Assembly (NCBI GenBank): GCA_025642075.2
Contig: JAODUO010000440.1
Coordinates: 446,501-510,500, forward strand
Source: Ridgeia piscesae
Taxonomy: Eukaryota > Annelida > Polychaeta > Sabellida > Siboglinidae
Direction of reading: 5' to 3'
Length of the DNA: 64,000 nt
Notes under the pieces: generated by a model
Told to the model about the DNA's origin: nothing
Databases searched by the model: none
Seen by the model: the letters and a program-made list of their open reading frames with translations, nothing else
Translations under genes and position numbers: made by a program
In this document: positions 9,334 to 50,657 of the stretch, one piece after another
Layout: every line of letters begins with the position of its first letter
Numbering within the stretch: the first letter of the stretch is position 1

Positions 9334-12300
9334 TTGAGTGTCTAGACGCTGTGCTGTCAGTGTTGTATGTCTAGATGATGTGCTATCAGTGTTGTGTGTC
9401 TAGACGCTGTGCTGTCAGTGTTGTATGTCTAGATGATGTGCTATCAGTGTTGTGTGTCTAGACGCTGTGCTATCAGTGTTGTGTGTCTAGACGCTGTGCT
9501 GTCAGTGTTGTGTGTCTAGATGCTGTGCTGTCAGTGTTGTGTGTCTAGATGCTGTGCTGCCAGTGTTGTATGTCTAGATGCTGTGCTGCCAGTGTTGTAT
9601 GTCTAGATGCTGTGCTGTCAGTGTTGTATGTCTAGATGCTGTGCTGCCAGTGTTGTATGTCTAGATGCTGTGCTGTCAGTGTTGTATGTCTAGATGCTGT
9701 GCTGTCAGTGTTGTGTGTTTAGATGCTGTGCTGTCAGTGTTGTGTGTCTAGACGCTGTGCTGCCAGTGTTGTGTCTAGACACTGTGCTGCCAGTGTTGTG
9801 TCTAGACACTGTGCTGCCAGTGTTGTGTCTAGACACTGTGCTGCCAGTGTTGTGTCTAGACACTGTGCTGCCAGTGTTGTGTCTAGACACTGTGCTGCCA
9901 GTGTTGTGTCTAGACACTGTGCTGCCAGTGTTGTGTCTAGACACTGTGCTGCCAGTGTTGTGTCTAGACACTGTGCTGCCAGTGTTGTGTCTAGACACTG
10001 TGCTGCCAGTGTTGTGTCTAGACACTGTGCTGCCAGTGTTGTGTGTCTAGACACTGTGCTGCCAGTGTTGTGTCTAGATGCTGTGCTGCCAGTGTTGTGT
10101 GTCTAGACACTGTGCTGCCAGTGTTGTGTCTAGACACTGTGCTGCCAGTGTTGTGTCTAGATGCTGTGCTGCCAGTGTTGTGTGTCTAGACACTGTGCTG
10201 CCAGTGTTGTGTCTAGACACTGTGCTGCCAGTGTTGTGTCTAGACACTGTGCTGCCAGTGTTGTGTCTAGACACTGTGCTGCCAGTGTTGTCTCTAGATG
10301 CTGTGCTGCCAGTGTTGTGTCTAGACACTGTGCTGCCAGTGTTGTGTCTAGACTGTGCTGCCAGTGTTGTGTCTAGACGCTGTGCTGCCAGTGTTGTGTC
10401 TAGACACTGTGCTGCCAGTGTTGTGTCTAGACACTGTGCTGCCAGTGTTGTGTCTAGACACTGTGCTGCCAGTGTTGTGTCTAGACACTGTGCTGCCAGT
10501 GTTGTCTCTAGACACTGTGCTGCCAGTGTTGTGTCTAGACACTGTGCTGCCAGTGTTGTGTCTAGACACTGTGCTGCCAGTGTTGTGTCTAGACACTGTG
10601 CTGCCAGTGTTGTGTCTAGACACTGTGCTGCCAGTGTTGTGTCTAGACACTGTGCTGCCAGTGTTGTGTCTAGACACTGTGCTGCCAGTGTTGTGTCTAG
10701 ACACTGTGCTGCCAGTGTTGTGTCTAGACACTGTGCTGCCAGTGTTGTGTCTAGACACTGTGCTGCCAGTGTTGTGTCTAGACACTGTGCTGCCAGTGTT
10801 GTGTCTAGACACTGTGCTGCCAGTGTTGTGTCTAGACACTGTGCTGCCAGTGTTGTGTCTAGACTGTGCTGCCAGTGTTGTGTCTAGACTGTGCTGCCAG
10901 TGTTGTGTCTAGACACTGTGCTGCCAGTGTTGTGTCTAGACGACTGTGCTGCCAGTGTTGTGTCTAGACGCTGTGCTGCCAGTGTTGTGTCTAGACGCTG
11001 TGCTGCCAGTGTTGTGTCTAGACGCTGTGCTGCCAGTGTTGTGTCTAGACACTGTGCTGCCAGTGTTGTGTCTAGACACTGTGCTGCCAGTGTTGTGTCT
11101 AGACGCTGTGCTGCCAGTGTTGTGTCTAGACGCTGTGCTGCCAGTGTTGTGTCTAGACGCTGTGCTGCCAGTGTTGTGTCTAGACGCTGTGCTGCCAGTG
11201 TTGTGTCTAGACGCTGTGCTGCCAGTGTTGTGTCTAGACGCTGTGCTGCCAGTGTTGTGTCTAGACACTGTGCTGCCAGTGTTGTGTCTAGACACTGTGC
11301 TGCCAGTGTTGTGTCTAGACACTGTGCTGCCAGTGTTGTGTCTAGACACTGTGCTGCCAGTGTTGTGTCTAGACACTGTGCTGCCAGTGTTGTGTCTAGA
11401 CACTGTGCTGCCAGTGTTGTGTCTAGACACTGTGCTGCCAGTGTTGTGTCTAGACACTGTGCTGCCAGTGTTGTGTCTAGACACTGTGCTGCCAGTGTTG
11501 TGTCTAGACACTGTGCTGCCAGTGTTGTGTCTAGACACTGTGCTGCCAGTGTTGTGTCTAGACACTGTGCGCCAGTGTTGTGTCTAGACACTGTGCTGCC
11601 AGTGTTGTGTCTAGACCTGTGCTGCCAGTGTTGTCTCTAGACACTGTGCTGCCAGTGTTGTTCTAGACACTGTGCTGCCAGTGTTGTGTCTAGACACTGT
11701 GCTGCCAGTGTTGTGTCTAGACACTGTGCTGCCAGTGTTGTTCTAGACACTGTGCTGCCAGTGTTGTGTCTAGACACTGTGCTGCCAGTGTTGTGTCTAG
11801 ACACTGTGCTGCCAGTGTTGTCTCTAGACACTGTGCTGCCAGTGTTGTTCTAGACACTGTGCTGCCAGTGTTGTGTCTAGACACTGTGCTGCCAGTGTTG
11901 TCTCTAGACACTGTGCTGCCAGTGTTGTGTCTAGACACTGTGCTGCCAGTGTTGTGTCTAGACACTGTGCTGCCAGTGTTGTCTCTAGACACTGTGCTGC
12001 CAGTGTTGTCTCTAGACACTGTGCTGCCAGTGTTGTGTCTAGACACTGTGCTGCCAGGTGTTGTGTCTAGACACTGTGCTGCCAGTGTTGTGTCTAGACA
12101 CTGTGCTGCCAGTGTTGTGTCTAGACACTGTGCTGCCAGTGTTGTGTCTAGACGCTGTGCTGCCAGTGTTGTCTCTAGACACTGTGCTGCCAGTGTTGTG
12201 TCTAGACACTGTGCTGCCAGTGTTGTGTCTAGACACTGTGCTGCCAGTGTTGTGTCTAGACACTGTGCTGCCAGTGTTGTCTCTAGATGCTGTGCTGCCA

Positions 12301-12656
12301 GTGTTGTGTCTAGACGCTGTGCTGCCAGTGTTGTGTCTAGACACTGTGCTGCCAGTGTTGTGTCTAGACACTGTGCTGCCAGTGTTGTCTCTAGATGCTG
12401 TGCTGCCAGTGTTGTCTCTAGATGCTGTGCTGCCAGTGTTGTCTCTAGACACTGTGCTGCCAGTGTTGTGTCTAGACACTGTGCTGCCAGTGTTGTGTCT
12501 AGACACTGTGCTGCCAGTGTTGTCTCTAGATGCTGTGCTGCCAGTGTTGTGTCTAGACACTGTGCTGCCAGTGTTGTGTCTAGACACTGTGCTGCCAGTG
12601 TTGTGTCTAGACACTGTGCTGCCAGTGTTGTCTCTAGATGCTGTGCTGCCGGTGCT
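9334..12656. repeat. Minisatellite, 29-bp then 27-bp unit, about 120 copies
   Basis: The unit reads roughly CTGTGCTGCCAGTGTTGTG followed by TCTAGACA. The first 400 bp has 29-bp units with an extra TG (TGTATGTCTAGATG). From about 9770 it shifts to 27 bp. Each common unit holds the 10-bp perfect palindrome TGTCTAGACA, and CAGTGT/ACACTG could pair around it. Because 27 is divisible by three and the unit lacks stops in several frames, long artefactual open frames run through on both strands. The array ends only 36 bp before the 3' splice site of the RGS exon at 12693. Confidence 0.97.
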
Positions 12657-12692
12657 GTTGGTGTAGACTGTAGACAGTGTTGTCTGTTTCAG

Positions 12693-12806
12693 TTTGATTC
12701 ATCACTGCCAGCAATATGAGGAGTTGGACCCATTCCTGTTTCCTGCCCTGCCATCAAATCCCTGGATCTCTGACGATGTGAGCATGTGGATGCTGAATAC
12801 CGTCCT
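12693..12806 (+). CDS. RGS9: RGS9/11-like gene, exon A (linker between GGL and RGS domains)
   Basis: Regulator of G-protein signalling of the R7 family: these proteins pair with a Gbeta5 subunit and speed GTP hydrolysis by Gi/o-class alpha subunits at the membrane. This exon translates, after one base that completes a split codon, to a segment containing [20 protein letters not shown] then ISDD. That matches the conserved YxEYDPFLxPPxPSNPWxSDD stretch just upstream of the RGS domain in R7 proteins. It is flanked by TTTCAG at 12687-12692 and GTGAGT at 12807, and ends in phase 2, which fits the exon at 27123. The preceding 3.3 kb is minisatellite, leaving only about 36 bp of unique intron before the acceptor. 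Earlier exons (DEP, DHEX, GGL) were not found in the window, so the gene is 5'-incomplete here. Confidence 0.88.
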
Positions 12807-20996: not shown

Positions 20997-21465
20997 GATG
21001 ATACACAAGTTATCCTCTGTGTGACAACAGACTGGATATACTTACACAGTACAGCCATCTCAGCAGATTGACAAGCAAATAGATTTGTCCAAATGTATGC
21101 AAAAGATAAATAGAATACGAAAATATATTTAATTTACATGGACCAACAGTTAAGGAGACTGTCACGGTTGAACATTGAACCAGTGTCACATTGGTAGAAA
21201 TGTAATTATGATTATTGAATCAATCGTTGATGTTGCTTCGTATTTGGCTTTATAATTTGTTGTCACGGTGTAATACTATGCTGTCAAAAAGGGGTGTGTA
21301 CATTGATTAGGGCATGTACATTTAATTAACAGACTAAGTACAGTAGGTTGGTTGTCTGTCTCCTTTCCCTGATTCAGCTAGATCACAATTAAATAAAAAC
21401 TGACAAACCAACAGCATACTGATTTGGTGGACATCATTGGGGAAAAATAATATATTGTTTCAGTT

Positions 21466-24400
21466 ATCAGTGCTGTTACTGGGTCCTATGTATCAGTGCT
21501 GTTACTGGGTCCTATGTATCAGTGCTGTTACTGTGTCCTATGTATCAGTGTTGTTGCTGGGTCCTATGTATCAGTGCTGTTACTTGGTCCTATGTATCAG
21601 TGCTGTTACTGTGTCCTATGTATCAGTGTTGTTACTTGGTCCTATGTATCAGTGCTGTTACTGTGTCCTATGTATCAGTGTTGTTACTTGGTCCTATGTA
21701 TCAGTGCTGTTACTGGGTCCTATGTATCAGTGTTGTTACTGGGTCCTATGTATCAGTGCTGTTACTGGGTCCTATGTATCAGTGCTGTTACTGTGTCCTA
21801 TGTATCAGTGTTGTTACTTGGTCCTATGTATCAGTGTTGTTACTGGGTCCTATGTATCAGTGCTGTTACTGTGTCCTATGTATCAGTGTTGTTACTTGGT
21901 CCTATGTATCAGTGCTGTTACTGGGTCCTATGTATCAGTGCTGTTACTGGGTCCTATGTATCAGTGTTGTTACTGGGTCCTATGTATCAGTGTTGTTACT
22001 GGGTCCTATGTATCAGTGCTGTTACTGGGTCCTATGTATCAGTGTTGTTACTTGGTCCTATGTATCAGTGTTGTTACTTGGTCCTATGTATCAGTGCTGT
22101 TACTGGGTCCTATGTATCAGTGTTGTTACTTGGTCCTATGTATCAGTGTTGTTACTGTGTCCTATGTATCAGTGTTGTTACTTGGTCCTATGTATCAGTG
22201 CTGTTACTGGGTCCTATGTATCAGTGCTGTTACTGGGTCCTATGTATCAGTGTTGTTACTGGGTCCTATGTATCAGTGTTGTTACTTGGTCCTATGTATC
22301 AGTGCTGTTACTGGGTCCTATGTATCAGTGCTGTTACTGGGTCCTATGTATCAGTGTTGTTACTGGGTCCTATGTATCAGTGTTGTTACTGGGTCCTATG
22401 TATCAGTGCTGTTACTGTGTCCTATGTATCAGTGCTGTTACTGGGTCCTATGTATCAGTGTTGTTACTGGGTCCTATGTATCAGTGCTGTTACTGGGTCC
22501 TATGTATCAGTGTTGTTACTTGGTCCTATGTATCAGTGCTGTTACTGGGTCCTATGTATCAGTGCTGTTACTGGGTCCTATGTATCAGTGCTGTTACTGG
22601 GTCCTATGTATCAGTGCTGTTACTGGTCCTATGTATCAGTGCTGTTACTGGGTCCTATGTATCAGTGCTGTTACTGGGTCCTATGTATCAGTGCTGTTAC
22701 TGGGTCCTATGTATCAGTGCTGTTACTGGGTCCTATGTATCAGTGTTGTTACTGGGTCCTATGTATCAGTGCTGTTACTGGGTCCTATGTATCAGTGCTT
22801 TTTACTTGGTCCTATGTATCAGTGCTTTTTACTGGGTCCTATGTATCAGTGTTGTTACTGGGTCCTATGTATCAGTGTTGTTACTGGGTCCTATGTATCA
22901 GTGTTGTTACTGGGTCCTATGTATCAGTGCTTTTTACTTGGTCCTATGTATCAGTGCTGTTACTGGGTCCTATGTATCAGTGCTTGTTACTTGGTCCTAT
23001 GTATCAGTGCTGTTACTTGGTCCTATGTATCAGTGCTGTTACTTGGTCCTATGTATCAGTGCTGTTACTTGGTCCTATGTATCAGTGTTGTTACTTGGTC
23101 CTATGTATCAGTGCTGTTACTTGGTCCTATGTATCAGTGCTGTTACTTGGTCCTATGTATCAGTGTTGTTACTGGGTCCTATGTATCAGTGCTGTTACTG
23201 GGTCCTATGTATCAGTGCTTGTTACTTGGTCCTATGTATCAGTGTTGTTACTGGGTCCTATGTATCAGTGCTGTTACTGGGTCCTATGTATCAGTGTTGT
23301 TACTTGGTCCTATGTATCAGTGCTGTTACTTGGTCCTATGTATCAGTGTTGTTACTAGGTCCTATGTATCAGTGCTGTTACTGGGTCCTATGTATCAGTG
23401 CTGTTACTTGGTCCTATGTATCAGTGTTGTTACTGGGTCCTATGTATCAGTGTTGTTACTGGGTCCTATGTATCAGTGCTGTTACTGGGTCCTATGTATC
23501 AGTGTTGTTACTTGGTCCTATGTATCAGTGCTGTTACTGGGTCCTATGTATCAGTGCTGTTACTGGGTCCTATGTATCAGTGTTGTTACTGGGTCCTATG
23601 TATCAGTGTTGTTACTGGGACCTATGTATCAGTGCTGTTACTGGGTCCTATGTATCAGTGTTGTTACTGGGTCCTATGTATCAGTGTTGTTACTGGGTCC
23701 TATGTATCAGTGTTGTTACTGGGTCCTATGTATCAGTGCTGTTACTGGGTCCTATGTATCAGTGCTGTTACTGGGTCCTATGTATCAGGCCTGTTACTGG
23801 GTCCTCTGTATCAGTGCTGTTGCTGGGTCCTATGTATCAGTGCTTTTTACTTGGTTTCCTCTGTATCAGTGCTGTTACTGGGTCCTATGTATCAGTGTTG
23901 TTACTGGGTCCTATGTATCAGGACTGTTACTGGGTCCTCTGTATCAGTGCTGTTGCTGGGTCCTCTGTATCAGTGCTGTTGCTGGGTCCTCTGTATCAGT
24001 GCTGTTCCTGGGTCCTCTGTATCAGTGCTGTTCCTGGGTCCTCTGTATCAGTGCTGTTCCTGGATCCCATGTATCAGTGCTGTTCCTGGGTCATATGTAT
24101 CAGTGCTGTTCCTGGGTCCTCTGTATCAGTGCTGTTCCTGGGTCCTCTGTATCAGTGCTGTTCCTGGGTCCTCTGTATCAGTGCTGTTCCTGGATCCTAT
24201 GTATCAGTGCTGTTCCTGGGTCCTCTGTATCAGTGCTGTTCCTGTGTCCTCTGTATCAGTGCTGTTCCTGGGTCCTCTGTATCAGTGCTGTTCCTGGGTC
24301 CTCTGTATCAGTGCTGTTCCTGGGTCCTCTGTATCAGTGCTGTTCCTGGGTCCTCTGTATCAGTGCTGTTCCTGGTTCCTCTGTATCAGTGCTGTTCCTG

Positions 24401-26205
24401 GGTCCTATGTATCAGTGCTGTTCCTGGGTCCTCTGTATCAGTGCTGTACCTGGGTCCTCTGTATCAGTGCTGTTCCTGGGTCCTCTGTATCAGTGCTGTT
24501 CCTGGGTCCTCTGTATCAGTGCTGTTACTGGGTCCTGTGTATCAATGTTGTTACTGGGTCCTATGTATCATGGGTCCTATGTATCAGGACTGTTACTGGG
24601 TCCTCTGTATCAGTGCTGTTCCTGGATCCTCTGTATCAGTGCTGTTCCTGGGTCCTCTGTATCAGTGCTGTTCCTGGTTCCCCTGTATCAGTGCTTTTTA
24701 CCCGGGTCCTATGTATCAGGGGCCTTTTTCCCTGGGTCCTCTGTATCAGTGCCTGTTCCTGGGTCCTCTGTATCAGTCCTGTTCCTGGGTCCTCTGTATC
24801 AGTGCTGTTCCTGGGTCCTCTGTATCAGTGCTGTTGCTGGGTCCTCTGTATCAGTCCTGTTGCTGGGTCCTCTGTATCAGTGCTGTTCCTGGGTCCTTCT
24901 GTATCAGTCCTGTTGCTGGGTCCTCTGTATCAGTGCTGTTCCTGGGTCCTCTGTATCAGAGTTGTTGCTGGGTCCTATGTATCAGTGCTGTTGCTGGGTC
25001 CTCCTGTATCAGTCCTGTTACTGGGTCCTCTGTATCAGTGATGTTACCTGGGTCCTCTGTATCAGTGCTGTTGCTGGGTCCTATGTATCAGTGCTGTTGC
25101 TGGGTCCTCCTGTATCAGTGATGTTACTGGGTCCTCTGTATCAGTGATGTTACTGGGTCCTCTGTATCAGTCCTGTTGCTGGGTCCTCTGTATCAGTGCT
25201 GTTGCTGGGTCCTCTATATCAGTGCTGTTGCTGGGTCCTCTGTATCAGTGCTGTTCCTGGGTTCTCTGTATCAGTCCTGTTGCTGGGTCCTCTGTATCAG
25301 TGCTGTTGCTGGGTCCTCTATATCAGTGCTGTTGCTGGGTCCTCTGTATCAGTGCTGTTCCTGGGTTCTCTGTATCAGTCCTGTTGCTGGGTCCTCTGTA
25401 TCAGTGCTGTTGCTGGGTCCTCTGTATCAGTGCTGTTGCTGGGTCCTCTGTATCAGTGCTGTTGCTGGGTCCTCTGTATCAGTGCTGTTCCTGGGTCCTC
25501 TGTATCAGTCCTGTTGCTGGGTCCTCTGTATCAGTGCTGTTCCTGGGTCCTCTGTATCAGTGCTGTTGCTGGGTCCTATGTATCAGTGCTGTTGCTGGGT
25601 CCTCCTGTATCAGTGATGTTACTGGGTCCTCTGTATCAGTGATGTTACTGGGTCCTCTGTATCAGTCCTGTTGCTGGGTCCTCTGTATCAGTCCTGTTGC
25701 TGGGTCCTCTGTATCAGTGCTGTTGCTGGGTCCTCTGTATCAGTGCTGTTCCTGGGTCCTCTGTATCAGTCCTGTTACTGGGTCCTCTGTATCAGTCCTG
25801 TTACCTGGGTCCTCTGTATCAGTGCTGTTGCTGGGTCCTATGTATCAGTGCTGTTACTGGGTCCTCCTGTATCAGTCATGTTACTGGGTCTCTGTATCAG
25901 TTATGTTACTGGGTCCTCTGTATCAGTCCTGTTCCTGGGTCCTCTGTATCAGTCCTGTTGCTGGGTCCTCTGTATCAGTTATGTTACTGGGTCCTCTGTA
26001 TCAGTTCTGTTCCTGGGTCCTCTGTATCAATCCTGTTACTGCGTCCTCTGTATCAGTCCTGTTACTGCGTCCTCTGTACCAGTCCTGTTACTGGGTCCTC
26101 TGTATCAGTGCTGTTACTGGGTCCTCTGTATCAGTCCTGTTCCTGGGTCCTCTGTATCAGTCCTGTTACTGCGTCCTGTGTATCAGTCCTGTTCCTGGGT
26201 CCTCT
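21466..26205. repeat. Minisatellite, 26-bp unit, about 180 copies (4.7 kb)
   Basis: The 26-bp unit is built from CAGTGCTGTTACTGGGTCC followed by TATGTAT. Composition changes along the array. GTTACTGGGTCCTATG dominates to about 23.8 kb, GTTCCTGGGTCCTCTG from about 24.0 to 24.7 kb, and GTTGCTGGGTCCTCTG with CAGTCCTG to the end. All three forward frames are stop-free for kilobases, giving 1236-, 1199- and 620-codon open frames that each cycle through the same 26-residue translation. This is expected for a 26-bp stop-free unit and is not evidence of a protein. Lies in the 14.3-kb RGS intron, ending about 0.9 kb before the next exon. Confidence 0.97.
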
Positions 26206-26589
26206 GGACCTGTTGGAATCAGACTAACTACAACACATCAGATCGAAAATTATCCAGTGATGTACATAATGAACATGATGTAAATATTTCTCTCCATCCT
26301 GGTGAGAGTTAATCACATAATCTAGGACATTATTCAAGCCGAGTTTTTGCTGCAAACTAATGGACATAAAGATGAGAAAGTAATCAGCCCAGACAGGACC
26401 TTCCTAGTAGATCATGCTTACGGTGAATTGTGGGTTCAATTACTCTGCTTATTTCCCCGTGAATGTCAGTCCATGTTGGTATTCGAATAAAGCTTGCCTG
26501 GGTTTTGGAAGTCCTAATAATAACTAAGCTAAATGGATTGAGTGTGGCTTGTGTCACAAATGTTGACCTATTTGTGAAACTGGCTGGGG

Positions 26590-27122: not shown

Positions 27123-27326
27123 GGTTGACACACCGACAGAGCGCCGAGTCAAACGATGGTCGTTCTCACTGGAGGAGCTGTTGGCCGACGCAACCGGCCG
27201 ACACGAGTTCCAGATGTTTCTCGAGAAGGAATACAGCAGTGAAAACTTGCACTTCTGGAATGCTGTGGAGGAACTGAAAGGACTGCCTCACTCCCAAGTA
27301 CCCAGCAGAGTGCACACCATCTACCA
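27123..27326 (+). CDS. RGS9: RGS9/11-like gene, exon B (first half of the RGS domain)
   Basis: After a base that completes a Leu codon with exon A, the exon encodes VDTPTERRVKRWSFSLEELL and then RGS helices. The RVKRWxF motif that opens R7 RGS domains is present, as is SSENLHFW, whose Asn corresponds to the Galpha-contacting Asn88 of RGS4. The end, VPSRVHTIYQ, matches VPSRVQEIWQ of RGS7. The acceptor is TCCTCAG at 27116-27122 and the donor is CCA|GTAAGT at 27327. The last 30 bp and this donor are also the first unit of a 63-copy, 40-bp tandem array (27297-29830). Reading past the first donor meets an in-frame TAA at 27328-27330, so use of a later donor would truncate the RGS domain. Confidence 0.95.
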
Positions 27327-29830
27327 GTAAGTCCCACGTACCCAGCAGAGTGCACACCATCTACCAGTAAGTCCCACGTACCCAGCAGAGTGCACACCAT
27401 CTACCAGTAAGTCCCACGTACCCAGCAGAGTGCACACCATCTACCAGTAAGTCCCACGTACCCAGCAGAGTGCACACCATCTACCAGTAAGTCCCATGTA
27501 CCCAGCAGAGTGCACAACATCTACCAGTAAGTCCCACGTACCCAGCAGAGTGCACACCATCTACCAGTAAGTCCCACGTACCCAGCAGAGTGCACACCAT
27601 CTACCAGTAAGTCCCACGTACCCAGCAGAGTGCACACCATCTACCAGTAAGTCCCACGTACCCAGCAGAGTGCACACCATCTACCAGTAAGTCCCACGTA
27701 CCCAGCAGAGTGCACACCATCTACCAGTAAGTCCCACGTACCCAGCAGAGTGCACACCATCTACCAGTAAGTCCCACGTACCCAGCAGAGTGCACAACAT
27801 CTACCAGTAAGTCCCATGTACCCAGCAGAGTGCACAACATCTACCAGTAAGTCCCACGTACCCAGCAGAGTGCACACATCTACCAGTAAGTTCCCACGCA
27901 AAATTACCCAGCAGAGTGCACACCATCTACCAGTAAGTCCCACGTACCCAGCAGAGTGCACAACATCTACCAGTAAGTCCCACGTACCCAGCAGAGTGCA
28001 CAACATCTACCAGTAAGTCCCACGTACCCAGCAGAGTGCACAACATCTACCAGTAAGTCCCACGTACCCAGTAGAGTGCACACCATCTACCAGTAAGTCC
28101 CACATACCCAGCAGAGTGCACACCATCTACCAGTAAGTCCCACATACCCAGCAGAGTGCACAACATCTACCAGTAAGTCCCACATACCCAGCAGAGTGCA
28201 CACCATCTACCAGTAAGTCCCAAGTACCCAGCAGAGTGCACAACATCTACCAGTAAGTCCCACATACCCAGCAGAGTGCACAACATCTACCAGTAAGTCC
28301 CACATACCCAGCAGAGTGCACAACATCTACCAGTAAGTCCCAGCATACCCAGCAGAGTGCACAACATCTACCAGTAAGTTCCACATACCCAGCAGAGTGC
28401 ACAACATCTACCAGTAAGTCCCACATACCCAGCATCTACCAGTAAGTCCCACATACCCAGCAGAGTGCACAACATCTACCAGTAAGTCCCACATACCCAG
28501 CAGAGTGCACAACATCTACCAGTAAGTCCCATGTACCCAGCAGAGTGCACAACATCTACCAGTAAGTCCCACGTACCCAGCAGAGTGCACAACATCTACC
28601 AGTAAGTCCCACAGTACCCAGCAGAGTGCACAACATCTACCAGTAAGTCCCAAGTACCAAGCAGAGTATATACCATCTACCAGTAAGTCCCATGTACCCA
28701 GAAGAGTGCACAACATCTACCAGTAAGTCCCACATACCCAGCAGAGTGCACAACATCTACCAGTAAGTCCCAAGTACCCAGCAGAGTGCACACCATCTAC
28801 CAGTAAGTCCCACAGTACCCAGCAGAGTGCACAACATCTACCAGTAAGTCCCACATACCCAGCAGAGTGCACACCATCTACCAGTAAGTCCCACGTACCC
28901 AGCAGAGTGCACAACATCTACCAGTAAGTCCCACATACCCAGCAGAGTGCACAACATCTACCAGTAAGTCCCACATACCCAGCAGAGTGCACAACATCTA
29001 CCAGTAAGTCCCACGTACCCAGCAGAGTGCACAACATCTACAGTAAGTCCCGCATACACAGCAGAGTGCACACCATCTACCAGTAAGTCCCACATACCCA
29101 GTAGAGTGCACAACATCTAACAGTAAGTCCCACATACCCAGTAGAGTGCACATCATCTACCAGTAAGTCCCAAAAAGTTACCCCCAGTCCCAGGGGTGCA
29201 CAACATCTACCAGTAAGTCCCACGTATCCAGCAGAGTGCACAACATTTACCAGTAAGTCCCAAGTACCCAGTAAAGTGCACAACATCTACCAGTTAGTCC
29301 CACGTACCTAGCAGAGTGCACAACATCTACCAGTAAGTCCCACGTACCCAGTAGAGTGCACAACATCTACCAGTAAGTCCCATGTACCCAGTAGAGTGCA
29401 CAACATCTACCAGTAAGTCCCACGTACCCAGTAGAGTGCACACCATCTACCAGTAAGTCCCACATACCCAGTAGAGTGCACACCATCTACCAGTAAGTCC
29501 CACATACCCAGCATCTACCAGTAAGTCCCATGTACCCAGTAGAGTGCACAACATCTACCAGTAAGTCCCATGTACCCAGTAGAGTACACAACATCTAGTA
29601 ATTCCCACGTACCCAGTAGAGTGCAGAGCATCTCCCAGTAAGTCCCACATACCCAGTAGAGTGCACAGCATCTACCAGTAAATCCCAAGTACCCAGTAGA
29701 GTGCAACACATCTACCAGTAAGTCCCACGTACCCAGTAGAGTGCAAAACATCTACCAGTAAGTCCCAAGTACCCAGTAGAGTGCACAACATCTACCAGTA
29801 AGTCCCAAGTATACAGTAGAGTGCAACACA
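27297..29830 (+). repeat. Tandem array of an exon-intron junction: 40-bp unit with 5' splice site, about 63 copies
   Basis: The unit is GTACCCAGCAGAGTGCACAC plus CATCTACCA, then GTAAGTCCCAC. The first unit is the end of RGS exon B and its splice donor. The rest of the array copies both the coding end and the donor, so most units keep CTACCA|GTAAGT exactly. Early units are nearly identical; later ones drift (CCACATACCC, GTAGAGTGCA, CAGTTAGTCC at 29291) and the array fades out by about 29940. Small deletions drop part of a unit near 28434 and 29514. The unit length, 40, is not divisible by three, and every frame meets TAA within three units. Confidence 0.96.
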
Positions 29831-30320
29831 TCTACACGTTGGTCCGTAAGTACTCAGCAGAGTGCACACTATTTACCAGTAAGACCAGATATCGTCTACC
29901 CGTAAGTCCCTTGCACCCTGCAGAGTGCACCATATCTAACTACAACACCTGTATCTATCAGAGCATTTTTCTGGATTGGCAAAAAATTGAATCTACACAC
30001 AGATGTAGCGGAGTCCACTTTAATGGTTAAGCACACAATGCTAAAAAAAAATTTATTATTATTATATAATAACCTTGTATTATATGATAACACAGACATC
30101 TGAAATGTCGTCAAACTTAATGCACGTGTTTTCAATATTTCTAGGGAGCTTGCTGCTTGCAAAACATAGATGGTGTAACTGAGGTTGTCTGCTCTCCACC
30201 AGATGAAGGCTCATTCAGTTGTTTTAGTGCACATTTGCAGTGATGTTGTCGCATTGGCAACACTTTGTGTGATAGTAAGCTGGTTGTTTAGTTTCACCAT
30301 TGCCATGTCTGCTGCTTCAG

Positions 30321-30410
30321 ACAGTATTTGGGGCCAGGCGCCCTACACGAGATCAACATTGACGGAAAGACAATGGAAGAAACAGTGGAAGCAATGAAGT
30401 CTCCCTCTCG
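30321..30410 (+). CDS. RGS9: RGS9/11-like gene, exon C (middle of the RGS domain)
   Basis: It joins exon B in phase 2 (CA plus A gives Gln) and encodes QYLGPGALHEINIDGKTMEE and then TVEAMKSPSR. INIDGKTM is the signature of RGS9, and the LGPGA/LAPGA turn is typical of R7 members. The Asn in EINID corresponds to the catalytic-contact Asn128 of RGS4. The acceptor is GCTTCAG at 30314-30320 and the donor GTGAGT at 30411. At 90 bp it is symmetric (phase 2 to phase 2). Confidence 0.93.
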
Positions 30411-31382
30411 GTGAGTGGGACCCGCCGTTATCTGATCTTCCTCAGGCAACAGTGTTGATGGTCCTAGCGCAGTTTACAAGACTCATTTGGGTTTTATCGC
30501 AACAGTGCTAGTTGTTGACCATTACTCATGCTGCTGACCGGGTGTAGATGTTTTAATGGCTTGGGTGATGTTCCCTGTCATGTGTATTAGGAAACAAGGA
30601 TTGTTTTTTATTTTCAGTTAAACCCAATTTCATATTGATAATTATTTTTCTCAAGGTTAAACATCCTAGAATGGGGTACTTTTCAAAATCACTGGCATAT
30701 GAATTATTTGTGAAACCTAAAGGTGGAAGAAAATATTGACCTGTCCCTGAGTACACCCTATCTCAGCATATCATCTTGACTTAATTGCGGTTCCTGGAGG
30801 TGTGTCTGTGTAATGTTCTACTTCGCCTCTGGTATCACTGAGGTCAGTGCAGTTTTGTTGGAATAATAAAAGTACTGATATATTGTATAGTTTTTTAAAG
30901 ATATATGAACCCATGAAAATTTGATGTCAAAGATGCAAAATATCGAAGAGGGAAAACGTAAAATACATCACCCTTGTACATCCTAACTTAATTCTACTTT
31001 ATGTTAAAATGACTATGGCTGCCCCACGACTTGGAATTGGCCAGCGTAGTAATTTGTGACAGGGCGTCTGCTGTATTGAACGTGGGAACGTCGGAGATGA
31101 AAGAGTATTATGGTATGGTGACTAGCCTTAACAATATTGCCACTAAAGCTTGTTTTCAACCTGGATGGTTTGTTTACCATGTGGTCATGTTATGCAGTGG
31201 ACACTTACAAATTGCTAGTGTTACAAGGTTAAAGTAATTAAACACAATTTGGCTGAGAGTTTATTTGCAACATGTGTATCTTAAAAATGTTAATTTAGCA
31301 AACAAAGCCCAGGAGCAGGAGCCCACCTTTTAGTAAATGGAGAATAAACAGGAGTTGTAACGATGTATTTTGGTGTTTGCAG

Positions 31383-31511
31383 ATTCACGTTTGACAAAGC
31401 TCAGGCTCATATCTTCCTGCTCATGAAGAAGGACAGTTACCAGAGATTCCTGCGGTCAAACGAGTACAAAGCTCTGCTGGCCAATGCGGTCATTCCAAGC
31501 ACAAAGAAAAA
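31383..31511 (+). CDS. RGS9: RGS9/11-like gene, exon D (end of the RGS domain)
   Basis: Encodes [20 protein letters not shown] and then [16 protein letters not shown], with the RGS-domain helix motif KKDSYxRFLRS that contacts Galpha and closes the fold. MKKDSY and the following AxIP resemble RGS9 and RGS11 more than RGS6/7. The acceptor is TGCAG at 31378-31382, and the donor GTAAGT at 31512-31517 is canonical. A 73-bp tandem repeat begins about 30 bp after the donor. The exon is 129 bp and symmetric. Confidence 0.95.
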
Positions 31512-31540
31512 GTAAGTCAGTCTGATGAAATACAAATCAA

Positions 31541-32915
31541 GACAATTATTCAGGAAAAACCTAGTGGCCTCAGGTAGTGAGGTAATGTACTGTGAGAGGA
31601 GGTTATACAGCGAGACAATTATTCAAGAGAAACCTAGTGGCCTCAGGTAGTGAGGCAATGCACTGTGAGAGGAGGTTATACAGCAAGACAATGATTCAAG
31701 AGAAACCTAGTGGCCTCAGGTAGTGAGGCCATATATGTGAGAGGAGGTTATACAGCGAGGCAATGATTCAAGAGAAACCTAGTGGCCTCAGGTAGTGAGG
31801 CAATGCACTGTGAGAGGAGGTTATACAGCGAGACAATGATTCAAGAGAAACCTAGTGGCCTCAGGTAGTGAGGCCATGTACTGTGAGAGGAGGTTATACA
31901 GCGAGGCAATGATTCAAGAAAAACCTAGTGGCCTCAGGTAGTGAGGCCATGTACTGTGAGAGGAGGTTATACAGTGAGGCAATGATTCAAGAGAAACCTA
32001 ATGGCCTCAGGTAGTGAGGCCATGTATGTGAGAGGATGTTATACAGCGAGGCAATGATTCAAGAGAAACCTAGTGGCCTCAGGTAGTGAGGCCATGTACT
32101 GTGAGAGGAGGTTATACAGCGAGGCAATGATTCAAGAGAAACCTAGTGCCCTCAGGTAGTGAGGCAATGTACTGTGAGAGGAGTTATACAGCGAAGCAAA
32201 CAAGAGAAACCTAGGGCTCAGGTAGAGGCCATGTCTGTGAAATGTTTTACAGCGAGGCAATGATTCAAGAGAAACCTAGTGGCCTCAGGTAGTGAGGCAA
32301 TGTACTGTGAGAGGAGGTTATACAGCGAGACAATGATTCAAGAGAAACCTAGTGCCCTCAGGTAGTGAGGCCATGTACTGTGAGAGGAGGTTATACAGCG
32401 AGGCAATGATTCAAGAGAAACCTAGTGGCCTCAGGTAGTGAGGCCATGTACTGTGAGAGGATGTTATACAGCGAGGCAATGATTCAAGAGAAACCTAGTG
32501 GCCTCAGGTAGTGAGGCAATGTACTGTGAGAGGAGATTATACAGCGAGACAATGATTCAAGAGAAACCTAGTGCCCTCAGGCAGTGAGGCCATGTACTGT
32601 GAGAGGAGGTTATACAGCGAGGCAATGATTCAAGAGAAACCTAGTGGCCACAGGTAGTGAGGCCATGTACTGTGAGAGGAGGCTATACAGCGAGACAATT
32701 ATTCAAGAGAAACCTAGTGGCCTCAGGTAGTGAGGCAATGTACTGTGAGAGGAGATTATACAGCGAGACAATGATTCAAGAGAAACCTAGTGGCCTCAGG
32801 TAGTGAGGCCATGTACTGTGAGAGGAGTTATACAGCGAGACAATGATTCAAGAGAAACCTAGTGCCCTCAGGTAGTGAGGCCATGTACTGTGAGAGGAGG
32901 TTATACAGCAAGACA
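31541..32915. repeat. Minisatellite, 73-bp unit, about 19 copies
   Basis: Units carry ATTCAAGAGAAACCTAGTGG, CCTCAGGTAGTGAGGC and TGTGAGAGGAGGTTATACAG in order. One strongly eroded unit lies near 32175-32245. The word CTCAGGTAGTGAG in each unit resembles a splice donor (CAG|GTAGTG). The array starts within the intron about 30 bp after the donor at 31512. Confidence 0.95.
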
Positions 32916-34038
32916 AGAGTCACTGTTAGGGTTACAAAGGTCACACCCCAAAATTGCTTAAATTGTGCACAATTTGGCAAAGGCGTCATGGCTGATAGGG
33001 CTGCTTACTTCTCTGTTGTGTTACTTAATGAAATTAAAATTTTTATTTCCCCAGAATGGGTGGATTTCATGATTAAGTTCCCAAACCTAAGCTCAGCATT
33101 GGCAAGTGTTGTCTCTGCTGCTTCATCCAAAATGTAGAGACACCTCCGGGGTTACTCCGTATAACTGAAGATCATCTGAAACTATATAGCCACCTTTCAC
33201 AAAATAATTATGCTCTATCACATCTGGGATTACTTCAAAGTATTAATAAAATTACTCCAAGTTCAAATTACATAATTTTGTGGACTTTGTTGAACTTTGT
33301 TTTCATCATTAGTAAGGAAATATGTGAGTGTAATGCCACTTCACCAATGCATTCTGGGAAGCATTAAATGGAGGTAGTCTATTGGCCACGGACATAAGCA
33401 TTAGTAGGAAGTTGATAAAATTGGTTGTCTTTAATCTGGAACATCACAAGGCTTTTTGTTTAAGCCTTCTGTGTTCACAACACCACTGTGTCACAGCTGT
33501 GTATAATAATCTGAACATATTGTAGACATTTTGCACAACTATTTGGCCGGCAGTCTTCAAAATATGTATTTAGACATGCTTTAGACTTTAGCAAATTATC
33601 AGATGTAACAACCAAAATAATTTCATTTGACCAATGAAGCAAAAGCAATCACTTTTGTATTAAACTGAATGTGACATAACTATGACATGATGCTTGTGTG
33701 GACACAGATAACTAGGTTCACAATGGCTAATCCACTCGAGGAATCAATATTGTTGCAGAAACCAGGGGTGTCAATCATACATTGCTTTTATGAAGTTTTT
33801 GTTATCTGTTTCATGTATGTTATGATTATTTTAGTTTTTTATTTATTTTATATAAACCTTGTTATTTGTTACTTTTATTGTTTTGCGCAGATACTAATAC
33901 GTTAATGCGTATTGTGTGATTGGTATGAAAGATAAATAAATAACAAATAGCGCAAATTAAGAATTTCACCAAGTGAAGATAAAACTACAAATCAAACAAT
34001 TAGTCACACACCTGAGTTCACACGCCACGTGGTTGTAG
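32916..34038. other. Remaining intron between RGS exons D and E
   Basis: AT-rich, with no supported exon. The 72-codon frame at 33687-33905 is rich in Phe/Tyr/Ile from AT-rich sequence and lacks splice-phase support. Exons D and E join in phase without additional sequence. Confidence 0.55.
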
Positions 34039-34563: not shown

Positions 34564-34602
34564 GTGCACAATTGAGGAGCAAAAGACATCTAACCACAGA
34601 AG
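34564..34602 (+). CDS. RGS9: RGS9/11-like gene, exon F (39-bp micro-exon in the tail)
   Basis: A 39-bp exon encoding ECTIEEQKTSNHR with split codons at both ends. It has a good acceptor (TTTCTTTCTGCAG, ending 34563) and a donor, AAG|GTGAGA, at 34603. It joins both neighbours in phase 2. The tail has no family motif here, so the call depends on the strong splice signals and the frame. A 32-bp tandem array starts directly at its donor. Skipping it would keep the frame. Confidence 0.68.
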
Positions 34603-36166
34603 GTGAGATCTCTGCTGGAATCAGTTACTAATACATGAAATCTCTGCTGGAATCAGTTACTAATACATGAAATCTCTGCTGGAATCAGTTACTAATACAT
34701 GAAATCTCTGCTGGAATCAGTTACTAATACATGAAATCTCTGCTGGAATCAGTTACTAATACATGAAATCTCTGCTGGAATCAGTTACTAATACATGAAA
34801 TCTCTGCTGGAATCAGTTACTAATACATGAAATCTCTGCTGGAATCAGTTACTAATACATGAAATCTCTGCTGGAATCAGTTACTAATACATGAAATCTC
34901 TGCTGGAATCAGTTACTAATACATGAAATCTCTGCTGGAATCAGTTACTAATACATGAAATCTCTGCTGGAATCAGTTACTAATACATGAAATCTCTGCT
35001 GGAATCAGTTACTAATACATGAAATCTCTGCTGGAATCAGTTACTAATACATGAAATCTCTGCTGGAATCAGTTACTAATACATGAAATCTCTGCTGGAA
35101 TCAGTTACTAATACATGAAATCTCTGCTGGAATCAGTTACTAATACATGAAATCTCTGCTGGAATCAGTTACTAATACATGAAATCTCTGCTGGAATCAG
35201 TTACTAATACATGAAATCTCTGCTGGAATCAGTTACTAATACATGAAATCTCTGCTGGAATCAGTTATCAATCCATGATTTCTCTGCTGGAATCAGTTAC
35301 TAATACATGAAATCTTTGCTGGAATCAGTTACTAATACATGAAATCTCTGCTGGAATCAGTTACTAATACATGAAATCTTTGCTGGAATCAGTTACTAAT
35401 ACATGAAATCTTTGCTGGAATCGGTTACTAATACATGAAATTTCTGCTGGAATCAGTTATGAATCCATGATATCTCTGCTGAAATCAGTTACCAATCTAT
35501 GGTATCTCTTCTGAAATCAGTACCAATCCATGAGATCTGCACTGGAATCAGTTACTAATCCACGAAATCTCTGCTGGAATCAGTTATGAATCCATGATGT
35601 CTGTGCTGGGATCAGTTATCAATCCATGAGATCTCTGCTGGAATCAGTTACCAATCCATGAGATCTCTGCTGGAATCAGTTATCAATCCATGATGTCTGT
35701 GCTGGAATCAGTTACCAATTCATGAGATCTCTGCTGGAATCAGTTACAATCCATGAGATCTCTGCTGGAATCAGTTATCAATCCATGATGTCTGTGCTGT
35801 AATCAGTTACCAATTCATGAGATCTCTGCTGGAATCAGTTATCAATCCATGATGTCTGTGCTGGAATCAGTTACCAATCCATGAAATCTCTGCTGGAATC
35901 AGTTACAATCCATGAGATCTCTGCTGGAATCAGTTACAATCCATGAGATCTCTGCTGGAATCAGTTATCAATCCATGATGTCTGTGCTGTAATCAGTTAC
36001 CAATCCATGAAATCTCTGCTGGAATCAGTTACCAATCCATGAAATCTCTGCTGGAATCAGTTACCAATTCATGAGATCTCTGCTGGAATCAGTTACCAAT
36101 TCATGAGATCTCTGCTGGAATCAGTTACCAATCCATGATAATCTCTGCTGGAATCAGTTACCAATA
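34603..36166 (+). repeat. Minisatellite, 32-bp unit, about 49 copies, starting at a splice donor
   Basis: The first unit begins with the donor of exon F (GTGAGATCTCTGCTGGAATC followed by AGTTACTAATACAT). Next come about 20 near-identical units in which the start is GAAATCTCTGC, then a diverged half with GAGATCTCTGC, GATGTCTGTGC and ATCAATCCAT variants from about 35260. The array therefore shows a sharp boundary between a homogenised 5' half and an older 3' half. TACTAAT in each unit resembles a branch-point consensus (TACTAAC). Confidence 0.95.
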
Positions 36167-36606
36167 GATAAGTCGTTCTGTGATAGATTGAGTCTGTACA
36201 CACTTAGGCAGAAGACAGTATTTGTAGCTACTTTTTGTTAATTTGAAAAAAATTGCAGTAAATTGTAACTCTGCATATTGTCAACAACTGTTCAATTCAA
36301 TCATATGTGTCAATTGCAAAAAAATATGGTGCATAATATTGTTAGCAATTGCCAAATGTCCTTCCAATGTCCAGTATGAACCGTTAATCCATATGTTTTA
36401 ACAGTGGTCATATTTTATTTAGTGTATGAAAGTTTGTCATCCAAAATTTGTAGTAGAAAATGTTAACATACCACTCAATACATGCATACATGGCTGTATG
36501 CTGGTTCAGTGACATTTAGGTATCACTATATTTGCATTGGCTGGTTATTTTATTTTACACCCTGAAGCCGCAAGTAATAAAACAATATGTTAAATTTATA
36601 TTGATA

Positions 36607-36710
36607 ACATAACTTTGAGCCAAGTGTTTGGTTTACCAAGTAGCTTCATGAAGTCGAATGGCCTAGTGTGGAATGAGAATAATAACGTCTGTGTGTTTGT
36701 TTCTAAATTA
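36607..36710 (+). pseudogene. Degenerate duplicate of the intron-exon G junction
   Basis: About 129 bp upstream of the last exon the sequence repeats the same words in the same order. TTGAGCCAAGTGTTTGGTT matches TTGAGCCGAGTGTTTGGTT before exon G, and a 19-bp identity, ACCAAGTAGCTTCATGAAG, lies at 36635 and 36764. More exon-like sequence follows (GAATGGCCTAGTGTGGAATG). The copy lacks about 12 bp that hold the CTTTCAG acceptor, so it should not be spliced as an exon start. The 129-bp offset keeps the frame, and the reading frame is open from the copy into exon G. Confidence 0.8.
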
Positions 36711-36757: not shown

Positions 36758-36995
36758 CCTATCACCAAGTAGCTTCATGAAGAAATTGAATGACCTGGTG
36801 CGGAGTGAGAACACACGTAGTAACCTCGAGGTGCCGTCCCACCCCGCCCAGCTGACCGCTGACACCCAGCAGTCAGACGATGGGGGTGGAGGGAGCAGCG
36901 AGAGTGATGAACCGGCAGGGAGCAGCATTGCGCTGAACATTGCCGTGCCGAACACCAAACACAACGTCGTCGCCCCTTGGGAGGAGGACATATAG
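36758..36995 (+). CDS. RGS9: RGS9/11-like gene, exon G (last coding exon and stop)
   Basis: AG plus C completes Ser, then LSPSSFMKKLNDLVRSENTR and a Gly/Ser/Asp-rich stretch, ending VVAPWEEDI and TAG at 36993-36995. The end resembles the VICPWESL terminus of the long vertebrate RGS9 isoform, which supports both the frame and the RGS9/11 class. The acceptor is TTCTTTCAG, ending at 36757. All six introns between the recognised exons are phase 2. The seven exons sum to 333 codons plus stop. Confidence 0.88.
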
Positions 36996-43597: not shown

Positions 43598-43847
43598 ATT
43601 GACAGCAGTTGGTGGTGTTATTGTTTTTAGTAATTTCTAGTCATAAAAGTTGTTACTAAATGTATAATGTAATATAATGCATGGGTAAGACAGGATAATC
43701 TTTTACAAACGTAGACTGCAACAGTGTCAGGCAGCAGCAATTAAAGACATAAAATAATGAACGAAATTTATGTAAGTATTGTGAAGTTTTCTAATTTACA
43801 TAAACTGTAAAGAGAGCATAAATAACGTGTAAGAAATGAAGTGGTAC

Positions 43848-44006
43848 CTAGTGCCTTTAAGAAGCTGTCTCTTGTATCTGTATTCCGAACCGTGGATGCA
43901 ATATACATGACTGGTGTACGACCATCAGTTGACTTTCTTGGCCATGAGAGGAGCCACTGTATAACTCGCACCAGTGCGTCAATGATACTTGTATCATAGA
44001 CTACAT
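43848..44006 (-). CDS. EEF2KMT: EEF2KMT exon 6 (DxxY motif and following strands)
   Basis: Encodes (D)VVYDTSIIDALVRVIQWLL, a linker, then VMYIASTVRNTDTRDSFLKAL. The split D plus VVY gives the DxxY motif that marks methyltransferase family 16 and sits by the substrate-lysine pocket. IASTVRN matches VAFTVRN of the human enzyme. The acceptor is ATGTTGCAG and the donor GTACCA. It joins exons 5 and 7 in phase 1. Confidence 0.93.
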
Positions 44007-44641
44007 CTGCAACATAGCAACACTGACTGCCTTCACAATTCCATACACAAATATAATGTCTTAGAAGTGATGGTACATGTGTTTGTTGCATATTGAACTG
44101 GCTGTTATTCCATTTCCAATTAATGGAAAAACAACATGTGTATTGCAACAAGTATTACATCTACATAAAAAGTAAGTGTTAGGTAGATATTTTTATTTAT
44201 AAAAACAAAACCACTGGTGCCACAATGTAGTATATTTTCTGGATTTATGCTAAAAATTCAAATTGCATAACTTTGAATGGACAATTGTCATTCACTGGTT
44301 TTCATATGTCCTTTGCTGTATAGTCTGGTAACATACTAAAAACAAGTACTTTTGACTTTTAACTTTACTTTTAGTTACTGCTGTCATACGAAGGAAATAA
44401 ACTATTCAACCATGATATTGTCTTCAACCATAAACACACTTATTAGAAACAATATAGACTAATTTAAAATGCCAGAGTGAAAAACAAAGTGCCACTGTTG
44501 ACAGTGTCAATGAAGAGTAAGTTTATGCACAAACACATTTCTGCCATTCTGTCTTCATCTCTGCACTGGTTGATCACGCTGCCATTTCACTGCATTCGGA
44601 ATTCTGTTTTACACCGTGAAATGTTCCACATTCACATTTAC

Positions 44642-45033
44642 CTGCAGCCAGAAACACATCCACCCCTGCTGCCAAGTCCTCAAGGTCACCCTCAGTGACC
44701 TTCTCCCAGTCCAAGGACACAACTCTGACGCTGGTACATCGCCCTTTCAAGTTGTCTTTAGACATCTCTACACTAGCCTTCTCTGATGACAAGTACAATT
44801 CGTCACACTTCCTGTCATTGTCACTACACTGGCTTAGTGATTCTGGATGGACGTCCGTGGCCTGTGTTTGTGCTAGACCCTGAGCATATGTTGGTATGTT
44901 CAGTGCAATGTTCCTTTTCAGAGTGGCTAATACGTCCTTGTGGCAGTCTGTAAAGATGTACTGCTTTGGGTGGCAATTCTGGCAGACAACAAGGCCAGTG
45001 AACCCAAGCCCACTGCCCAATTCGAGGACGCAC
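44642..45033 (-). CDS. EEF2KMT: EEF2KMT exon 5 (SAM-binding core)
   Basis: The enzyme methylates a lysine of eukaryotic elongation factor 2 in the cytosol using S-adenosylmethionine. The exon starts with a split Arg and reads CVLELGSGLGFTGLVVCQNC, the glycine-rich motif I. Next comes YIFTDCHKDVLATLKRNIAL (acidic loop binding the SAM ribose) and, after a variable region, VRVVSLDWEKVTEGDLEDL, then VDVFLAA leading into exon 6. About 35-40 residues between the NIAL and SLDW segments (Gln/Ser/Glu-rich) are not present in the human protein as remembered. The acceptor is ACATTTCAG and the donor GTAAAT. Confidence 0.95.
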
Positions 45034-45520
45034 CTGAAATGTGACCTTTGAACTTAGTCATTTATCTGTGAAACACTACATGTAAACATGTATAATGAAT
45101 AGCAAGAATATGAAAACTCAAAATAATTTTATGATGGACGGTAATTTCCAAATATCTTGAATATTACAAAAATAAGAAAACAAACATAAAATAAAAAACA
45201 AACATACAACGTTGCAACATATACTGTTAAGCAGTTTGCAAATCCACAGCTGGAATTGGAGTTGGATTTAATAATTATTGTATTTATCACTTTATTTTCA
45301 TACATGACCCCAACAAAGTCATTATGACGATTATACATCATCATTGTAATTGACTCATAATTTATTACAGAATATAAATTAGACAATTATTATACAACTT
45401 GAGAGATAATAAAAATTTGTTTTGTAGACACTGACAGCATTGTTATTTTTATCCGACGGAAAACCATTAAACTTGCAGACTGCATCTCCAACTTTGTCCA
45501 TGTGTATGTGTATGTTGCAG

Positions 45521-50009: not shown

Positions 50010-50657
50010 GTGCATCGTCGTGCTGTACCTGTATTTTTCACAAGTCATGGAAAAACAACACCACCGACCTCACCTCATCACCAAGACGAACACACACACT
50101 ACCCCTGTGGTATATGCGATCACTCCGTTGGATGGGACCAGTGTGGAGTTGCTTGCGAATCATGCGGACAGTGGTTCCATGCTGGATGCCAACATATAAC
50201 CAGTAGATCGTATGAACACCTCGGCAGAAGTGATGTCACCTGGCACTGTGTCATCTGTGCTAATGCAAACCATAGCTCTATTGCTTATGACCTACATGGC
50301 CTGAGCCTCACCCAGCACAATATAACACCAACAGCAGACTCATCCCTGGACACAAACTCGGACAGCCCATTCCACCCGTACCACACATCCACCCCATCAA
50401 GAGCAAGCAAACAAGATAAACATGCTAGACGACCACTCCGTTTTCTCTCTGTGAACTGCCAGTCCATTGTTGGCAAGGTTGCAGAATTTGACAATCTTAT
50501 ACACACCTTAAGACCAGATGTAATTCTTGGAACGGAATCATGGCTAACTCCATCACACACCAACGCAGAAATATTCCCCAGGGGTTTTAACATCTATCGC
50601 AGACACAGACCTAGTAAGAGTGGGGAGGAGTATTCATTGATGTATCTGAAGACGTAA
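50010..50657 (+). pseudogene. LINE ORF part 1: PHD finger and start of endonuclease
   Basis: A complete C4HC3 PHD finger opens the frame: CGIC, then ACESC, WFHAGC and WHCVIC supply the eight metal ligands. A low-complexity linker leads to RPLRFLSVNCQSI and ILGTESWL, the first two endonuclease motifs (catalytic Asn and Glu). The frame is lost near 50640, where the continuing sequence shifts. Confidence 0.88.

What the first reader, a model, noticed from the sequence alone, without database searches (positions are those of the whole stretch)
27297..29830. An exon end plus its splice donor amplified about 63 times
The last 30 bp of a conserved RGS-domain exon and its GTAAGT donor form the first unit of a 40-bp tandem array. 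The array therefore presents dozens of near-identical 5' splice sites in a row, each preceded by the authentic exon sequence. Only the first gives a functional protein: reading on meets TAA at 27328. The gene must either choose the outermost donor reliably or lose RGS function through decoy use, and copy number could tune RGS output. I know of no described case of this scale, though I cannot search.
Basis: partly seen in the sequence, partly recalled or inferred. Interest (0 to 1): 0.88.

Follow-up and report, generated by a model that had tools for sequence, protein, structure and literature searches.

The report
Splice site repeated 65 times
In an animal genome that is likely a deep-sea tubeworm's, the end of one protein-coding exon together with the start signal of the next intron is repeated 65 times in a row, and since only the outermost copy would give the whole protein, the splicing machinery is predicted to pick that one and leave the look-alikes unused.

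Summary
The last 35 bases of an RGS-domain exon plus GTAAG form the first of 65 tandem 40-bp units at 27292-29886; GT is kept in 65 of 65 and GTAAGT in 60 of 65. Reading past the first donor meets TAA at 27328. The kind of thing is known: 'mirage' minisatellites of amphioxus repeat exon-intron boundaries (PMC3087553, PMC3902484, passages read). New here are the likely phylum (annelid), the copy number, and the recurrence. The same gene has a second exon-end-plus-donor array (14 GTAAGT) and an acceptor-plus-exon-start array (13 copies). Of the four arrays in the truncated listing of a genome scan for repeated donors, two start in exons of other genes: condensin-2 D3 and an asparagine-synthase-like gene. 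Arrays in this gene touch or nearly touch splice junctions more often than random placement gives (4 of 19, null mean 0.47; thresholds chosen afterwards). Most likely these are junction-seeded minisatellites that grow on the intron side and are tolerated because the outermost site is used. Splicing, copy-number variation and any regulatory role could not be tested.

The parts
27123..27326 (+). RGS exon whose end seeds the array (first part of the RGS domain)
   Evidence: Pfam RGS E 7.3e-10; tblastn of relatives; acceptor ctcag before 27123
27327..27332 (+). authentic donor GTAAGT, the first of the row
   Evidence: sequence; relatives' proteins continue across the join to 30321
27292..29886 (+). 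40-bp tandem array, 65 units; GT in 65 of 65, GTAAGT in 60 of 65
29887..29963 (+). degenerate tail of the array
   Evidence: seen under loose scoring only
27328..27330 (+). in-frame TAA met if the first donor is passed over
30321..30410 (+). next RGS exon
31382..31511 (+). third RGS-domain exon
   Evidence: Pfam RGS E 1.1e-7
31540..32922 (+). 73-bp array that starts 28 bases after a donor; no exon sequence in it
34564..34602 (+). small exon followed by donor GTGAGA
   Evidence: placed by its splice signals; no tblastn match of its own
34604..36169 (+). 32-bp array that starts at base +2 of that donor; its copies hold no GTAAG or GTGAG
9338..12668 (+). 27-bp array that ends about 24 bases before the acceptor of the GGL exon 12693-12806
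36612..36653 (+). degenerate second copy of the start of the last exon (36758-36995), without the TTTCAG acceptor
   Evidence: by eye in the sequence

Best explanation
In a genome that is likely a vestimentiferan tubeworm's, the last 35 bases of an RGS exon plus the first 5 of its intron stand 65 times head to tail, and splicing is predicted to use the outermost of these donors while the rest stay unused decoys. It is a 'mirage'-type minisatellite: a repeat that spans an exon-intron junction and has multiplied on the intron side. Shown by sequence: the unit's make-up, the kept donors, the stop codon met beyond the first donor, the ordered divergence away from the exon, a second exon-end-plus-donor array and an acceptor-side array in the same gene, and donor arrays that start in exons of two other genes. 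Inferred: the array arose by tandem duplication across the junction and grew by later slippage or unequal exchange near the exon. It is probably tolerated because a copied piece that ends at or beyond +5 leaves the first donor whole and puts every extra copy into the intron. The first donor probably wins because it is transcribed first and is paired with the upstream acceptor across the exon (exon definition, general knowledge). The array would then be nearly neutral, with at most a leak into nonsense transcripts.
For: 65 units, donor intact in 60. Copied piece ends at +5 in this array and at +6 in the second donor array of the gene (L012:8210-8742, 28 exon bases plus GTAAGT), so the first donor is whole in both. 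Acceptor-side array at L010:3242-4192: 69-bp unit with the acceptor and exon start, 13 copies counting the real one, which is the copy that borders the exon. Exon-near units almost identical, far ones worn (0.43, 2.46 and 4.24 mean mismatches for units 1-14, 15-40, 41-65; rank correlation 0.69); same shape in the 32-bp array at another donor (0.73). Array edges at junctions exceed random placement in the same introns: 4 of 19 against 0.47, P 0.0004; within 35 bp 6 of 19 against 0.94, P 2e-5. Other genes: condensin-2 D3 exon (PDB match E 2.7e-10) with about 20 copies of 59 bp, and an asparagine-synthase-like exon (Pfam E 0.0021) with about 10 copies. Genome scan with the donor word: 950 matches, reversed word 432. 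Amphioxus mirages are reported not to disturb splicing.
Against: No transcript was seen, so use of the first donor is inferred from homology and frame alone. Its predicted U1 pairing is weak (-5.6 kcal/mol, tied for the weakest of 12 donors listed) and no better than that of the decoys. Per base, junctions are not favoured: arrays cover 41% of the gene span and 112 of 300 random 22-mers had five or more copies, against 3 of 25 junctions. The placement thresholds were set after seeing the data, one exon was not found, the first intron's start is arbitrary, and one array counted as touching is 1 bp away. The gradient is not special to junctions: the 26-bp array 916 bp from the next exon has it too (0.64), the 73-bp array 28 bases from a donor does not (0.13), and the acceptor-side array does not show it; its complete inner copies all differ from the real copy at two exon bases. 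Of four arrays in the truncated genome listing two (C7, C18) show no exon. The match counts overlap within arrays and are not independent.
Confidence: 0.75

Rival explanations
1. The inner donors are used at a rate that grows with copy number. Transcripts from them stop at TAA 27328 and would be destroyed by nonsense-mediated decay, so the array would tune RGS output.
For: Decoys match the real donor in exon context and in predicted U1 pairing (57 of 58); GTAAGT is intact in 60 of 65.
Against: No transcripts. The donor columns are not clearly better kept than other quiet columns of the unit. Authors report or cite undisturbed splicing at amphioxus mirages.
Confidence: 0.12
2. The row of U1 sites works as a landing pad that protects the intron from premature cleavage and polyadenylation, or as a sink for U1.
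For: Dozens of identical U1-like sites in one intron. The protective role of U1 is recalled.
Against: No test here. Predicted pairing of each site is weak (-5.6 kcal/mol). The 32-bp array beside another donor of the gene holds no GTAAG or GTGAG in its copies, so donors are not needed for such an array.
Confidence: 0.05
3. Ordinary minisatellite turnover in an array-rich gene that happened to include a junction; splice sites play no part in where arrays start. The structure is the same as in the best explanation, only the preference for junctions is denied.
For: Arrays cover 41% of the gene span and junctions are in arrays less often than random 22-mers. Two of four listed donor arrays show no exon.
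Against: Counted per array, touching a junction is in excess, and the donor word is in tandem about twice as often as its reversal.
Confidence: 0.35
4. Assembly artefact: copy number inflated or units misplaced.
For: The amphioxus globin authors found one mirage aberrantly assembled in a draft genome (PMC3087553, passage).
Against: Units carry private substitutions, insertions and deletions in a gradient; two more junction arrays lie in this gene and others in separate contigs.
Confidence: 0.03

Closest known systems
'Mirage' minisatellites of amphioxus (globin genes BflGb6 and BflGb9, Adh3, TnC; PGBD5 compared with them)
   Same: Tandem repeats that span an exon-intron boundary, on donor or acceptor side, many units with AG/GT signals, authentic site beside the exon (PMC3087553 and PMC3902484, passages).
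   Different: Likely an annelid; 65 units against 3 and 6 in the two BflGb6 haplotypes; unit 40 bp (BflGb6 150-160 bp, Adh3 10-72 bp); three amplified junctions in one gene. Length instability and splicing not tested here.
Variable internal tandem repeats at exon-intron boundaries of human segmental duplications
   Same: Minisatellite units of about 30 bp at exon-intron boundaries (PMC2812944, passages).
   Different: There units average four copies, lie in recent paralogues, and can change the splicing pattern; here the exon end is kept and 65 units lie in one gene.
Intron gain by tandem duplication of exon parts with AG/GT sites
   Same: Tandem duplication that copies splice-like signals (titles and abstract starts of PMC4974935 and PMC2891723 in the listing; model cited in PMC3087553).
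   Different: Here no new intron is apparent; the copies lie inside an existing intron.
Minisatellites in the first intron of earthworm metallothionein genes
   Same: Annelid gene with large tandem repeats in an intron (PMC12783039, passages).
   Different: In the passages I saw no amplified splice junction is described.

Membership tests
mirage minisatellite | tandem unit spans an exon-intron boundary of a gene | tested here: met
   35 exon bases plus GTAAG in each unit; exon conserved
mirage minisatellite | units carry splice signals | tested here: met
   GT in 65 of 65, GTAAGT in 60 of 65
mirage minisatellite | regular splicing of the mRNA is not disturbed (reported, not strictly defining) | not testable with these tools
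   no transcripts available
mirage minisatellite | length instability between haplotypes (reported) | not testable with these tools
   one assembly, no reads
R7-type RGS gene (host gene) | DEP region, GGL domain and RGS domain in one gene | tested here: met
   RGS E 7.3e-10 and 1.1e-7; relatives with DEP, DHEX, GGL and RGS domains align from N-terminus to C-terminus; the GGL match itself is below its cut-off (23.8 against 27.1 bits) because only its second half was found
human boundary tandem repeats (ITRs) | repeat number varies between recent paralogues and alters the transcript | not tested
   no paralogue or transcript examined

The most novel reading that the evidence does not exclude
In this genome splice junctions are preferred birthplaces of minisatellites: duplication across exon ends keeps seeding arrays that grow into introns, so that many genes carry rows of intact decoy splice sites and the spliceosome must read the outermost one by position alone. 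That would be a natural, genome-wide test of how a splice site is chosen among identical copies.
Probability: 0.4. Interest if true: 0.8.

Novelty: new variant of a known kind. Interest (0 to 1): 0.62.

Why it matters
Which of several identical donors a cell uses is an old question, usually asked with engineered genes holding a few copies (recalled). Here nature offers dozens with the same exon context, where only one leaves the protein whole. Transcripts from this gene and the condensin gene would show directly how strongly position decides. The find also suggests that mirage arrays are not a peculiarity of amphioxus; they may mislead gene prediction and supply raw material for new introns.

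Tried and rejected
RNA folding of the exon end plus about four units: not more stable than shuffles (z 1.04), so masking of decoys by structure is not supported. Splicing inside the array: no acceptor-like site (12 of 16 pyrimidines before AG) found in 27330-29880. Selection on the donors: nine donor columns hold 11 changes in 61 units against 113 in the other 31 columns, but 89 of the 113 sit in four hypervariable columns and some other nine-column windows are as quiet, so it is not claimed. Amphioxus as the source, suggested by the word 'mirage': none of the listed rows for the host gene is a lancelet (120 of 193 and 120 of 178 rows listed), and the transposon in the window points to Ridgeia (120 of 263 rows listed; one lancelet row at 46%). 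The 28, 30, 26, 35 and 45-bp arrays of the window are not near known junctions (nearest 916 bp). A second donor word (CAGGTAAGT) did not complete, so the genome-wide part rests on one word. A random sample of the genome was given up. Some exon edges in the script are off by one or two bases; the test allowed three errors. The script ended in an error after printing its table; one search repeated the alignment.

Full report
What was checked. The window holds the second half of an R7-type RGS gene on the + strand. The exon at 27123-27326 codes the first part of the RGS domain (Pfam RGS E 7.3e-10; PDB RGS7 E 2.1e-28 for two joined exons) and ends in ATCTACCA|GTAAGT. Relatives from Capitella, Tubulanus and an unnamed source run straight across this point, so the join 27326 to 30321 is supported by homology, though by no transcript.

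The array. From 27292 the sequence is a 40-bp tandem repeat. Wrap-around alignment gives 65 units to 29886, with a degenerate tail to 29963 under loose scoring. Unit 1 is the real exon end: 35 exon bases and GTAAG. GT is kept in 65 of 65 units and GTAAGT in 60 of 65. Passing over the first donor means reading TAA at 27328, so an inner donor would give a protein cut inside the RGS domain. Predicted pairing with U1 is the same for the real donor and for 57 of 58 scanned array donors; at -5.6 kcal/mol it is tied for the weakest of the 12 donors listed for the gene (U1 end recalled).

Gradient. Units near the exon are almost identical and units far from it are worn: mean mismatches to the exon-near unit 0.43 for units 1-14, 2.46 for 15-40, 4.24 for 41-65; rank correlation of distance to unit 1 with position 0.69 (units are not independent, so its P value is only a guide). 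The 32-bp array that starts at base +2 of another donor in the gene has the same shape (0.73). Against a special role of exons, the 26-bp array 916 bp from the next exon also has a gradient (0.64); the other six of nine arrays have weak or none (-0.12 to 0.35), among them the 73-bp array 28 bases from a donor.

The rest of the gene. I fetched 80 kb upstream and placed 13 exons, 12 with relatives' proteins and one small one by its splice signals; one linking exon was not found. Two more junctions are amplified. At exon E6 (L012:8210-8742) the last 28 exon bases plus GTAAGT repeat, with 14 GTAAGT. At exon E1 (L010:3242-4192) a 69-bp unit holds the acceptor and the exon start, 13 copies counting the real one. 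In both donor arrays the copied piece ends at +5 or +6, just where the donor signal is complete. In all three the functional site is the copy that borders the exon. The E1 array shows no gradient towards the exon: its complete inner copies all differ from the real copy at two exon bases. Of 25 junctions tested, 3 are amplified. The 32-bp array beside another donor holds no GTAAG or GTGAG, so decoys are not a rule.

Is this more than an array-rich gene would give? Two answers. Per base, no: arrays cover 41% of the gene span and 112 of 300 random 22-mers had five or more copies, against 3 of 25 junctions, which would fit constraint on exons. Per array, yes: 4 of 19 touch a junction where random placement in the same introns gives 0.47 (P 0.0004), and 6 of 19 lie within 35 bp where it gives 0.94 (P 2e-5). 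The thresholds were set after seeing the data, the first intron's start is arbitrary, one exon is missing, and one array counted as touching is 1 bp away.

Elsewhere in the genome. The window lies in contig C440 of a 628-Mb genome of 4875 contigs. The word CCAGTAAGT three times with gaps of 14-54 matched 950 times, its reversal 432 times; matches overlap within arrays and are not independent. The truncated listing showed arrays on four contigs, and I inspected those four. On C3 the array (about 20 copies of 59 bp) starts in an exon that matches condensin-2 subunit D3, E 2.7e-10. On C2 (about 10 copies of 59 bp) it starts in an exon with an asparagine-synthase match, E 0.0021, below the curated cut-off; the closer name ASNSD1 is recalled. 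On C7 and C18 I saw no exon. So 2 of 4.

Source. A retrotransposon frame in the window is 95% identical over 53% of its length to a protein named as Ridgeia piscesae, a vestimentiferan tubeworm; the host gene's best named match by local identity is Capitella, an annelid, at 65%. The assembly is not the published Ridgeia one, which is 575 Mb with contig N50 10 kb (PMC9921365, passages). 'Likely a tubeworm' is as far as this goes.

Prior work. [quoted passage not shown] the globin paper reports 6 and 3 units in two haplotypes of one gene, both donor and acceptor sides, and takes RT-PCR and the Adh3 data to suggest that splicing is not disturbed (PMC3087553, passages). The PGBD5 authors compare their repeats with them (PMC3902484, passage). 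Human boundary repeats average four 30-bp units (PMC2812944, passages). The listings of my paper searches, which are capped, showed me no report of an array of this size at a splice junction; subscription papers are mostly not held, and the first mirage paper was not held.

Mechanism (inferred). Duplication across the junction, then growth on the intron side, with the exon held by selection. The outermost donor stays whole and is predicted to be chosen by exon definition and order of transcription. Decoy leakage is possible and untested. I found no sign that the decoys are kept by selection or masked by RNA structure.

Verdict. A real and large example of a known kind of structure, likely in a new phylum, with hints that it is general in this genome.

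Noticed in passing
window 1-41140 and L009-L013: The gene is unusually rich in minisatellites: arrays cover 41% of a 73-kb span, some with more than 100 units (26 bp x 182 at 21465-26206; 27 bp x 122 at 9338-12658).
   Followed up: partly
window 34604-36169: A 32-bp array starts at base +2 of a donor; its copies have lost the donor (TGAAATC in 29 units, TGAGATC in 11), unlike the 40-bp array.
   Followed up: partly
window 36612-36653: A worn second copy of the start of the last exon lies just upstream of it, without the acceptor; perhaps an old acceptor-side duplication.
   Followed up: no
window 50117-53159: Reverse-transcriptase reading frames of a non-LTR type element; the frame 51270-52295 is 95% identical over 53% to a Ridgeia piscesae protein.
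   Followed up: partly
window 43768-45053 (- strand): Open frames that look like a neighbouring methyltransferase gene (EEF2KMT/FAM86 type by recall).
   Followed up: no
G000:C7 519052-521297 and G000:C18 about 954800-959702: Donor-word arrays without a visible exon: 20 bp x 82 in the part held on C7, and a 34-bp array of several kb on C18.
   Followed up: partly
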